From Pseudooceanicola marinus (GTDB lineage Bacteria > Pseudomonadota > Alphaproteobacteria > Rhodobacterales > Rhodobacteraceae), in assembly GCF_002786295.1 (NCBI RefSeq), contig NZ_PGTC01000008.1:1-64000 (forward strand): DNA of 64,000 nt, written 5' to 3'. Below, in pieces: positions 5,084 to 14,660 of the stretch (its first letter is position 1; every line of letters begins with the position of its first letter). The notes under the pieces are model-generated. The model saw only the letters and a program-made list of their open reading frames with translations. It was not told the DNA's origin and made no database searches. The position numbers and the translations under genes were made by a program.

Positions 5084-5093
5084 GGAACGCGCC

Positions 5094-5561
5094 GTGAACT
5101 TTCCCGCCGGCACCCTGACCCTGCGCCCCTGCTGGACCGCCCATGTCCTGCTGGAGCCGACCCGAGAGCAGGGGCAGGGGCCCCTGGGCACCCGCCTGAT
5201 CGTGCCGATCACCGGGGGCCATTTTGAAGGGACCCTCGATCCCGGCGGCCCTGCGCCGCGCGCCTTCTCGGGGCGCGTCCTGCCGGGTGGTTTCGACCTG
5301 CAACGCTTGCGCGCTGATGGTGCCAAGGAGCTGGAGGCGATCTACCACATGGAGACCGATGACGGCACGGGCATCGAGATCCGCAACCACGCGCTGCTGA
5401 CCTATGATGCCGAGGGCGGCCTAGCCTATTCGCGCTCGCGCATCCACGTGGAAGCGCCCGAGGGGCCCTATGCATGGCTTAACCAAAGAATCTTCGTTGG
5501 TTCGGTTCAGGTGATGCGTCCTCAGGTCGAAGTCCTAATCCGCTCATTCGTCCTAGAGTGA
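5094..5561 (+). CDS. DUF3237 domain-containing protein
   Basis: A 155-residue soluble protein matching DUF3237: the core TRLIVPITGGHFEG, then GTGIEIRNHALLTY and the C-terminal YAWLNQRIFVGSVQV. The fold is probably a small beta barrel; the biochemical role of the family is not known. It starts with GTG preceded by GAGGAA at proper spacing. As last gene of the M20/TRAP operon it is presumably an accessory in metabolism of the imported compound (inference). Immediately downstream the base composition drops and transposon debris begins, so the native end of the operon may lie here or may have been cut off. Confidence 0.85.
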   Translation: MNFPAGTLTLRPCWTAHVLLEPTREQGQGPLGTRLIVPITGGHFEGTLDPGGPAPRAFSGRVLPGGFDLQRLRADGAKELEAIYHMETDDGTGIEIRNHALLTYDAEGGLAYSRSRIHVEAPEGPYAWLNQRIFVGSVQVMRPQVEVLIRSFVLE

Positions 5562-7757: not shown

Positions 7758-12625
<4,868 letters not shown>

Positions 12626-12756
12626 GGCGCCCCCGTATTCGGAGACGATGCCGCCCGTCCTTCCATCTGGGAGAGACGGCGAACACCCCTGTGCCGGTCT
12701 GACAGAGAACGGGCTAACACCTTGATGTTCCGGTGAAACCCTTTTTGTTCTCAAAT

Positions 12757-12771
12757 GTTCTTAAAAAGTTC
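12757..12771 (+). promoter_or_regulatory. LexA (SOS) box GTTC-N7-GTTC
   Basis: GTTCTTAAAAAGTTC is an exact match to the direct-repeat LexA box established for Rhodobacter and other alphaproteobacteria. Further GTTC half-sites lie at 12747-12750 (six bases before the box) and 12727-12730, and a GAAC at 12795-12798. The box lies 74-88 bp before the start of a 40-residue membrane protein and 132 bp after the recG stop, in an AT-rich island that looks like a promoter. It is predicted to make that small gene damage-inducible. Confidence 0.75.
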
Positions 12772-12844
12772 TTTACGTGGGGCCAGGAATGTGAGAACAA
12801 AGGGGCAACGCAGAGGAATGACACCGATCGCAAGGAGCCAAGAC

Positions 12845-12967
12845 ATGCTGAAAGACTTCATCCAGGTTGCCCGCCGTTCGCCTTCGGCGCTGGTTCAGGA
12901 TCTTTTCGGGGCCGCGGCCCTTGTCGTCCTTCTTCTGGGGTCACTCTATCTGCCGGCTCTGACCTGA
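12845..12967 (+). CDS. 40-residue single-pass membrane protein, probably SOS-regulated
   Basis: The small ORF starts MLKDFIQVARRSPSALVQ and ends in a hydrophobic stretch (about residues 20-38, rich in Leu/Val/Ala, ending LPALT). A basic amphipathic N-terminus followed by one membrane helix predicts an N-in inner-membrane microprotein. AAGGAG lies 8 bp before the ATG at 12845. An alphaproteobacterial LexA box sits upstream and a factor-independent terminator downstream, so it is a complete monocistronic unit. Known parallel: Caulobacter SidA, a 29-residue LexA-controlled inner-membrane cell-division inhibitor. I see no proof of homology; a similar role is an inference from size, topology and regulation. 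Confidence 0.7.
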   Translation: MLKDFIQVARRSPSALVQDLFGAAALVVLLLGSLYLPALT

Positions 12968-13098: not shown

Positions 13099-13134
13099 CC
13101 GCCGCCGTCCCCGTGACGTGCGGCGGTTTTTTTA
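13099..13134 (+). terminator. Rho-independent terminator
   Basis: CCGCCGC (13099-13105) pairs with GCGGCGG (13120-13126) and is followed by seven T residues. It closes the transcription unit of the 40-residue membrane protein and lies before the convergent MCP gene. Confidence 0.85.
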
Positions 13135-13238: not shown

Positions 13239-14660
13239 TCAGAACCGATAGGCCAGGCGCAGCCCGCCCCAGTGACGGTTCTTGACGAAGACCGGTGCCG
13301 AGAGGTCCTTCATCAGGACGTAGTCGCCGCCGCCCATGTCGCGCCGGTAGACCTGCATCAGGAAGGGATCCTTGTTGCGTCCGGCCTTCAGCCCGACACG
13401 GTCGTCGAAGATGCGGCGGTTGCGGCAATGGGCCATGTTCCAGACCGGATCATCGGATTGCGGGTGCGAGAACTTGCGGTTGTGGGTGGGCAGGTAGCCG
13501 TTGCGATCCACCGCGGCGCAGAAGGCGACCTTGTCATCCAGCGCCAGCGCCTCTTCCAGGATCTCGGGCAGGAGCAGGTCGGTCAGCCGCGTGAAGCGGG
13601 TGGTGACCTGTTCCGGGCTGCTGTTGGGCACCGGTCGGTAGTCGGTGTCGAAGAGATCGTCGAAACTGATGCGCCCCTCGTCCACGGCCTCTTCGAAGGC
13701 GGCGCCGATGCGGCGCGCACGCGCCTGCACATCGGCGATGAAGGGGCCATCCTCGGTGTCGCCGCCAACCGCGATCGAATCCTGCACCAGCGCCTCGGAC
13801 AGGTTGCGCAGCACCTGCAGGCGATGATGAACATCTTCGACCCCGTCGGCACTGTCCTGGACGCTGTTGAACATGCTCTCGATCCGCGGGGTGTAGTCGC
13901 GCAGTGCCGCGTCCGCCTCCACCGCATCGTCGCGCACCAGCTTCATCCGCGTGACGGAACGGTCCATCGCCTCCTTCACGGCGCCATTCATCTCGGCCAC
14001 CTTGTCGCCGGTATGCGAAAGCTCTCGCGAGGTGGCGGAAACCTGGCCGGTTTCCTGCTGCAGCGTGGTGATCCAGTCCACGAGCCGCTGGATGTTGTCG
14101 CTGATCGTGTCGGCCGTGGCGCCGGTCTGCTGCGACAGCTGGTTGATCGCATCGGCTACAACCGAGAAGCCCTGACCGGCCGTGCCGGCACGGGCGGCCT
14201 CGATCTTGGCGTTGATTGCCAGCATGTTCACCTGGGCGGCGATGTCGGCGATCTGGTCGTTGCTCTGCTGGACGTCCTCCAGCACGCTTTCCACGTCCAG
14301 GGTGCGGGTGGCCAGCGTCAGCACCCAGGTCAGTACCTCGCGCGACTGGCGGCCCGCGACATCGGCCATGCCGAGCGCCTTTTCGAAACTGGCCTGGGTC
14401 TCTTCCAGCTGGGCGCAGGAATCGCGGATCGTGGTCACCATGGCCGCGTTCATCTGCAACACCTGACCTGTGCCCTCGCGCACTGTCTTCAGCTGCCGCA
14501 ACAGCTGTTCGGTCTGCTGGGTCATGTCTTCGAGGAAACCGTCGACATCGACGATCTCCTGCCCGAGCGCCGAGGCGTTGCGGGCCAGCCGGTCGAGGGA
14601 AACACCGGCGGGCCGGGGGGGATCGGCGTCACGGGACGGGAAGGTTGGGTCGTGTTGCAT
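13239..14660 (-). CDS. soluble methyl-accepting chemotaxis-like receptor
   Basis: A 473-residue protein with the MCP signalling hairpin core around IAAQVNMLAINAKIEAARAG and FSVVADAINQLSQQ (roughly residues 138-177), flanked by long coiled-coil helices. No signal peptide or membrane span is visible, so it is a cytoplasmic receptor. The C-terminal third (about residues 330-473) is globular, with NRRIFDDRVGLKAGRNKDPF and a final LRLAYRF, resembling the sensory tail found in short soluble MCP-like proteins. The ligand is unknown. No che gene is nearby. It is convergent with the small SOS-box gene. Confidence 0.85.
   Translation of the reverse strand: MQHDPTFPSRDADPPRPAGVSLDRLARNASALGQEIVDVDGFLEDMTQQTEQLLRQLKTVREGTGQVLQMNAAMVTTIRDSCAQLEETQASFEKALGMADVAGRQSREVLTWVLTLATRTLDVESVLEDVQQSNDQIADIAAQVNMLAINAKIEAARAGTAGQGFSVVADAINQLSQQTGATADTISDNIQRLVDWITTLQQETGQVSATSRELSHTGDKVAEMNGAVKEAMDRSVTRMKLVRDDAVEADAALRDYTPRIESMFNSVQDSADGVEDVHHRLQVLRNLSEALVQDSIAVGGDTEDGPFIADVQARARRIGAAFEEAVDEGRISFDDLFDTDYRPVPNSSPEQVTTRFTRLTDLLLPEILEEALALDDKVAFCAAVDRNGYLPTHNRKFSHPQSDDPVWNMAHCRNRRIFDDRVGLKAGRNKDPFLMQVYRRDMGGGDYVLMKDLSAPVFVKNRHWGGLRLAYRF

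What the first reader, a model, noticed from the sequence alone, without database searches (positions are those of the whole stretch)
12757..12967. LexA-box-controlled 40-residue membrane protein beside recG: candidate SOS microprotein
Seen: an exact GTTC-N7-GTTC box with extra half-sites, then a Shine-Dalgarno, a 40-codon ORF with one membrane helix and basic N-terminus, then a clean terminator. Known: GTTC-N7-GTTC is the LexA box in Rhodobacter and other alphaproteobacteria, and Caulobacter has an SOS-induced inner-membrane division inhibitor of 29 residues, SidA. Inference: this is a damage-induced microprotein, perhaps acting on the divisome.
Basis: partly seen in the sequence, partly recalled or inferred. 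Interest (0 to 1): 0.75.

Follow-up and report, generated by a model that had tools for sequence, protein, structure and literature searches.

The report
Damage-switched membrane microprotein next to recG
Right after the DNA-repair gene recG, most members of a large bacterial family carry a tiny, uncatalogued membrane protein behind a strictly conserved switch of the DNA-damage type, which makes it a good candidate for the signal that pauses these cells while DNA is repaired.

Summary
The 40-codon ORF (12845-12967) is a genuine gene: its profile hits 347 of 394 genomes of the window's family, pN < pS in 940 of 946 pairs, and it matches nothing in Pfam or NCBIfam. The box alone is weak evidence (94 exact copies in the genome, 51 for the reversed control), but its conservation is not. 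In 54 of 54 genomes taken from the best protein hits, an exact GTTC-N7-GTTC lies upstream; reversed control 0 of 54. It is part of a rigid promoter: GTTC-N6-GTTC-N7-GTTC, 23 bases holding the -35, then GAAC-N7-CAAC over the probable -10. That 63-bp pattern occurs in 132 of 248 family genomes, control 0. The same box stands before recA and lexA in 20 of 20 genomes each, so LexA is the likely repressor. The protein is a predicted helix with near-invariant residues along one face, suggesting docking on a partner. SulA is absent in 20 of 20 genomes. Best reading: a family-wide SOS microprotein that probably arrests division as SidA does. Damage induction, LexA binding and target are unproven.

The parts
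12747..12750 (+). upstream GTTC half-site (GTTC-N6-GTTC with the main box)
   Evidence: 52 of 54 loci; 98% per base in 53 loci
12757..12771 (+). LexA box 1, GTTCTTAAAAAGTTC, abutting the -35
   Evidence: exact in 54 of 54 loci, reversed control 0 of 54; same box type at recA 20/20 and lexA 20/20
12772..12777 (+). putative -35 (TTTACG; relatives TTTACA, TTGACN, TTGCCN)
   Evidence: conserved block in 53 loci; variants read; the assignment is inference
12792..12800 (+). TGAGAACAA, region of the putative -10
   Evidence: 87-100% per base in 53 loci after a poorly conserved spacer; exact -10 register uncertain, inference
12795..12809 (-). LexA box 2, GAAC-N7-CAAC (read GTTG-N7-GTTC on the - strand), over the putative -10
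   Evidence: 53 of 54 loci; 38 bases from box 1 in 50 of 53 (second half allowed as C/G/TAAC); exact GAAC-N7-GAAC 36-38 bases after box 1 in G098, G051, G022, G474 and G104
12832..12837 (+). Shine-Dalgarno AAGGAG, 7 bases before ATG
   Evidence: G-rich peak at -11 to -9 in 53 loci
12845..12967 (+). 40-aa single-helix membrane microprotein gene
   Evidence: 347 of 394 family genomes; pN<pS in 940 of 946 pairs; predicted helices 2-11 and 13-39, mean pLDDT 86.7
13102..13133 (+). intrinsic terminator (stem CCGCCG/CGGCGG and T7)
   Evidence: a run of 5 or more T within 250 bases downstream in 52 of 53 loci, against 3 of 53 in a 250-base control stretch upstream
10535..12625 (+). recG, the constant upstream neighbour
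   Evidence: RecG by NCBIfam equivalog NF008164, 1097 bits against a cut-off of 785; found upstream in 30 of 30 protein-found loci and 78 of 80 promoter-found loci

Best explanation
The unit is a monocistronic SOS gene. Inferred from the operator layout: LexA dimers sit on box 1, abutting the -35, and on box 2, over the probable -10, and hold the promoter shut. DNA damage makes RecA trigger LexA self-cleavage (recalled pathway) and the promoter opens. A 40-residue protein is made and inserts with its N-terminal amphipathic part inside and its C-terminus outside (inferred from the mostly basic N-terminal part and the uncharged rest). The conserved face D19-G22-L26-L30-L34-P37 docks onto a membrane partner, most likely the septal wall synthase FtsW/FtsI, and pauses division until repair is done. 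Shown here: a coding gene, a predicted hydrophobic helix, a conserved two-box promoter, a shared LexA-type box. Inferred: LexA binding, induction, membrane insertion and topology, target. My odds: LexA-controlled SOS gene 0.9; division arrest through the divisome 0.45.
For: Profile hits in 347 of 394 family genomes. Box 1 in 54 of 54 loci with reversed control 0 of 54. Rigid 63-bp pattern in 132 of 248 genomes, once each, control 0. A promoter pattern scanned over named genomes: of the 80 loci listed, recG upstream in 78 and the ORF at profile E<0.01 in 77. Exact LexA-type box at recA and lexA, 20 of 20 each; LexA present in the same 20 of 20. Coding constraint. Near-invariant residues spaced along one helix face in 121 unique sequences. 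No SulA in 20 of 20. Two known SOS division inhibitors with one membrane helix act on FtsW: SidA (PMC4211646, passages) and YneA (PMC13396833, passages).
Against: No expression, binding or phenotype data. In the window's genome and most relatives the second half of box 2 is CAAC, not GAAC (exact GAAC-N7-GAAC in the 300 upstream bases in only 2 of 54), so it may be a weak site or serve another purpose. GTTC-N6-GTTC is not a canonical LexA spacing, so another regulator could share the promoter. The helix-face periodicity is only suggestive (shuffle fraction 0.06 for residues 19-37, 0.013 for 3-37, 0.12 for 3-18; the shuffles used a coarser angle grid, which favours the observed value a little), and L36 (91%) lies off that face. 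Net charge of the first 18 residues is positive in 44 of 53, not all. Four genomes (G205, G077, G038, G075) keep LexA but showed no box within 700 bases after recG.
Confidence: 0.5

Rival explanations
1. An SOS-induced membrane-depolarising peptide like TisB or DinQ: it lowers the proton gradient and pushes cells into dormancy rather than blocking division.
For: Similar size, one hydrophobic helix, LexA-type control. DinQ is described as a toxic single-transmembrane inner-membrane peptide among SOS-regulated genes (PMC3567139, abstract start in the listing).
Against: Near-invariant residues spaced along one helix face. The stretch from box 2 to the ATG is short, variable in length and poorly conserved apart from the ribosome site, with no sign of a conserved antisense-controlled leader (no direct antisense test was made). 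The gene is nearly universal in its family at one place beside recG.
Confidence: 0.13
2. An SOS-induced regulator of another membrane protein (for example a sensor kinase such as CckA, a protease or a transporter), changing signalling or gene transfer agent release rather than septation.
For: A conserved helix face; SOS and CtrA/GTA control are discussed as linked in this family (PMC6473078, passages).
Against: No linkage to such genes was seen; the constant neighbour is recG.
Confidence: 0.27
3. The promoter belongs to another regulator that reads GTTC repeats about 10 bases apart, so the gene is not part of the SOS response.
For: GTTC-N6-GTTC in 52 of 54 loci, sometimes twice, is not the usual spacing.
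Against: Box 1 has the exact LexA spacing in 54 of 54 and the same box type marks recA and lexA. Five divergent relatives carry exact GAAC-N7-GAAC in the place of box 2.
Confidence: 0.07
4. The conserved element is only a small RNA or a chance reading frame.
For: The ORF is very short.
Against: pN<pS in 940 of 946 pairs, a signal lost in the other two frames; near-invariant residues in 121 sequences.
Confidence: 0.02

Closest known systems
SidA (Caulobacter crescentus, 29 aa)
   Same: Tiny inner-membrane protein under LexA in an alphaproteobacterium (PMC4211646, passages); Caulobacter LexA consensus is the same box GTTC-N7-GTTC (PMC12700426, passages).
   Different: 40 aa rather than 29; beside recG within its own family; sequence relation and FtsW contact not tested.
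YneA / SosA (Firmicutes)
   Same: SOS-induced single-helix division inhibitors; YneA reaches FtsW through its membrane helix, and SosA and SidA are predicted there to meet FtsW too, with low model confidence (PMC13396833, passages).
   Different: YneA also needs an outside LysM domain; here only about three residues follow the conserved proline P37.
TisB / DinQ (E. coli)
   Same: SOS-linked single-helix peptides of similar size (DinQ: PMC3567139, abstract start; TisB: title and abstract start of PMC11575346, the rest recalled).
   Different: Those genes are paired with antisense RNAs (agrA/agrB for dinQ; TisB recalled); no conserved leader of that kind was seen here.
SulA (E. coli)
   Same: Fills the role of SOS division inhibitor.
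   Different: FtsZ inhibitor of another fold; Pfam SulA found in 0 of 20 family genomes.

Membership tests
LexA (SOS) regulon of alphaproteobacteria | GTTC-N7-GTTC box in the promoter, conserved in relatives | tested here: met
   54 of 54 loci, reversed control 0 of 54; positive controls recA and lexA 20/20 each (no reversed control run there; in one lexA locus, L115, the nearest box lies 217 bases upstream of the profile match)
LexA (SOS) regulon of alphaproteobacteria | LexA present in the same genomes | tested here: met
   20 of 20
LexA (SOS) regulon of alphaproteobacteria | induction by DNA damage, dependent on RecA and LexA | not testable with these tools
   no expression data held
SidA-type SOS division inhibitor | very short single-helix inner-membrane protein | tested here: met
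   39-42 aa in 53 of 53 parsed loci; hydrophobic segment from about residue 20; predicted helix 13-39; membrane location itself is inferred
SidA-type SOS division inhibitor | sequence homology to SidA | not tested
   SidA sequence not obtained
SidA-type SOS division inhibitor | binds FtsW/FtsI/FtsN and blocks division | not testable with these tools
   needs experiment
SulA (PF03846) | Pfam SulA domain | tested here: not met
   the window protein and the 22 A1 members hit no Pfam family; SulA elsewhere in 0 of 20 genomes, E. coli control positive
Type I toxin peptide (TisB/DinQ type) | antisense RNA and structured leader | tested here: inconclusive
   leader short, variable and poorly conserved; no direct antisense test

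The most novel reading that the evidence does not exclude
This is the unrecognised core SOS checkpoint protein of the whole Rhodobacteraceae family: a 40-residue helix, unrelated to SulA and perhaps to SidA, that stops septation by docking a D-G-L-L-L-P face onto the septal synthase, under a two-operator LexA promoter whose half-sites and spacings are kept exactly in 132 of 247 sampled genera.
Probability: 0.38. Interest if true: 0.78.

Novelty: new member of a known kind. Interest (0 to 1): 0.66.

Why it matters
Rhodobacteraceae are abundant marine and soil bacteria and include model photosynthetic species (recalled). The searches made here listed no described SOS division inhibitor for them (most subscription papers are not held). 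A gene with profile hits in 346 of 393 sampled genera behind an unusually rigid damage-type promoter would fill that gap. It would also add a test of the idea that SOS membrane microproteins converge on FtsW (PMC13396833, passages). The gene is missing from Pfam and NCBIfam, so it is easily overlooked in annotation and expression studies.

Tried and rejected
Chance box: counts alone do not exclude it, conservation does. Longer ORF from ATG 12755 (70 aa): rejected because the distance from box 1 to the ATG is not kept in frame across relatives (70 to 110). Wider spread: a class-wide draw of 385 genomes gave 10 with hits at E<=0.01, five in the own family and five weak ones elsewhere (E 0.001-0.008) inside long reading frames. 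Downstream of recG in other families I looked at 27 loci, the best-scoring of the 189 genomes matched: 26 had no exact box within 500 bases, and the one that did (L189) leads to an unrelated gene. Mobile origin: one protein query gave no match in phage or plasmid records; PHROGs hits of the 22 members only at E 0.04 or worse. Loss of LexA as the reason for loss of the gene: of 21 genomes tested (20 without a profile hit and G306 with a weak one), 4 lacked LexA (G050 and G080 at 97% completeness, G218 and G054 at 74-76%); recG was not found in G050, G080 and G218 either, and 17 had a LexA match (weak in G029), so inconclusive. Literature: no paper holds LexA, Rhodobacterales, SOS, recG and hypothetical together; no title or abstract start listed names this gene, but full texts were not read and supplements were not available. 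PMC6473078 does not mention recG in its main text. PMC11580390 and PMC4344238 (passages) were irrelevant.

Dropped or limited rows: L064, L068, L072, L076, L080 (second loci of genomes already counted); L086 for protein and profile work (match too near the contig start for my frame) though it is counted in the 54. The 54 loci are the best-scoring ones, not a random draw. In one search minus-strand loci were not turned; correct this.

Full report
What is there. The window holds ligA, then recG (10535-12625; RecG and LigA by NCBIfam equivalog models), then the unit in question, then a terminator and a gene on the other strand. The unit is: GTTC at 12747, box 1 GTTCTTAAAAAGTTC at 12757-12771, a -35-like TTTACG at 12772, TGAGAACAA at 12792-12800, box 2 GAACAAAGGGGCAAC at 12795-12809, AAGGAG at 12832, and the 40-codon ORF 12845-12967. 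A stem with seven T follows at 13102-13133.

Is it more than chance? One exact box is not: the window has 2 against 1.36 expected, and the genome has 94 against 51 for the pattern read backwards. Conservation decides. A search with the single protein found matches at E<=1 in 104 of 194 relatives, ten of them in other families and probably chance. A profile of 22 relatives (A1) found 347 of 394 genomes of the same family at E<=0.05, 346 of 393 by genus. A class-wide draw of 385 genomes gave credible hits only in the same family. The profile misses divergent copies. I took 30 family genomes: 19 of the 47 without a hit and 11 with weak hits; recG was found in 25. Of these 25, 19 have an exact GTTC-N7-GTTC or GAAC-N7-GAAC within 700 bases after recG (9 of the 14 that had no profile hit), and a twentieth (G306) has the N6 pair and GAAC-N7-CAAC. 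By eye, 19 of the 25 printed a short ORF with a hydrophobic stretch; no chance control was run for this step. Five (G205, G077, G029, G038, G075) show no box.

It is a coding gene. Over 44 ungapped relatives, pN was below pS in 940 of 946 pairs (means 0.345 and 0.657); read in the other two frames, pN and pS were 0.426 and 0.424, and 0.474 and 0.292. Length is 39-42 residues in 53 of 53 parsed loci; a few of the promoter-found members are shorter, down to 31.

The promoter. I used 54 loci from 54 genomes, the best-scoring protein hits, not chosen by the box. All 54 have exact GTTC-N7-GTTC in the 300 bases upstream, 53 have GAAC-N7-CAAC, 52 have GTTC-N6-GTTC, and the reversed control has 0. Outside the ORF and those 300 bases the same loci hold no exact same-strand box in 144,348 bases. 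In 53 aligned loci the conserved block runs from 13 bases before box 1 to about 53 after its start, with a poorly conserved gap at +20 to +31. Box 2 starts 38 bases after box 1 in 50 of 53. The distance from box 1 to the ATG is loose (70 to 110), so the rigid part is a DNA element. The whole 63-bp pattern, with exact spacing and CAAC or GAAC at the end, occurs in 132 of 248 family genomes, once in each, with zero control matches. In named genomes a 22-base promoter pattern found 118 stretches before the scan stopped at its limit; 80 were given as loci. Of these 80, recG stands upstream in 78 and the ORF scores E<0.01 in 77. The exceptions are a Muribaculaceae bin with neither (probably a chance match), a Paracoccus with E 0.048, and loci cut at an end. 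Genera include Ruegeria, Roseovarius, Sulfitobacter, Rhodobacter, Rhodovulum, Paracoccus, Salipiger and Thioclava.

Why LexA. In 20 family genomes LexA is present in 20, and an exact GAAC-N7-GAAC stands upstream of recA in 20 and of lexA in 20, including the window's genome. The same consensus is published for Caulobacter LexA (PMC12700426, passages). Five divergent relatives have an exact GAAC-N7-GAAC in the place of box 2, though only 2 of the 54 main loci have one. Box 1 ends where the -35 begins; box 2 covers the probable -10. The -35 reading rests on variants TTTAC, TTGAC and TTGCC. The -10 register is uncertain. A title in the reference list of PMC8407463 says that most R. sphaeroides promoters lack a crucial polymerase recognition feature; that this is the -7 T is recalled.

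The protein. The first 18 residues are net basic in 44 of 53 members, and no K, R, D or E follows residue 22 in any of the 53. A hydrophobic run follows, usually from about residue 20. AlphaFold2 gives helices 2-11 and 13-39, mean pLDDT 86.7. In 121 unique sequences D19, G22 and L34 are invariant, P37 99%, L26 98%, L30 91%. Their spacing 3-4-4-4-3 puts them on one face; L36 (91%) is off it. The periodicity test is suggestive only (0.06 for residues 19-37, 0.013 for 3-37). Such a face points to a partner protein. No family in Pfam or NCBIfam matches.

What it does. The constant facts are an SOS-type promoter, a tiny predicted membrane protein, and no SulA in 20 of 20 genomes. SidA of Caulobacter blocks division through FtsW (PMC4211646, passages), and YneA reaches FtsW by its membrane helix (PMC13396833, passages). 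By analogy the most likely role is a damage-induced division brake. I give 0.9 to LexA control and 0.45 to the division role. Rivals are a regulator of another membrane protein, a depolarising peptide, and a different regulator of the promoter.

Results against. LexA is kept but no box was seen downstream of recG in G205, G077, G038 and G075. Most box 2 copies are imperfect. Nothing here measures expression, binding or phenotype. SidA itself was not compared. The members were chosen by similarity or promoter match, which inflates conservation somewhat.

Noticed in passing
window 5085-5099 (-): The only other exact GTTC-N7-GTTC in the window (GTTCACGGCGCGTTC). Its GC-rich spacer and a TGA/GTG junction around it suggest a chance match.
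   Followed up: partly
L095-L114, upstream of recA: In 20 of 20 genomes a TGTTC half-site lies within 45 bases upstream of the exact LexA box of recA (read), so extra half-sites may be a wider habit of this family.
   Followed up: no
L115-L134, upstream of lexA: 18 of 20 lexA promoters read TTGACACAAAA shortly before the LexA box, often with TAGAAC as a possible -10 inside the box: operator and promoter overlap as in the microprotein gene.
   Followed up: partly
window 10535-10538: ligA and recG overlap by four bases (ATGA), a likely translational coupling.
   Followed up: no
window 13239-14660 (-): A 473-residue protein on the opposite strand, convergent with the microprotein gene, that resembles methyl-accepting chemotaxis proteins (NCBIfam hits below their cut-offs). 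In 42 of 54 loci the longest downstream frame is on the opposite strand.
   Followed up: partly
L043, L058, L060, L071 and others: Some relatives have a further GTTC half-site 10 bases upstream, giving GTTC-N6-GTTC-N6-GTTC-N7-GTTC. A 10-base array with A-tracts could bend the DNA or bind a second factor.
   Followed up: no
L189 (about 48 bases after recG): An exact GAAC-N7-GAAC after recG in another family, leading to an unrelated larger gene.
   Followed up: partly
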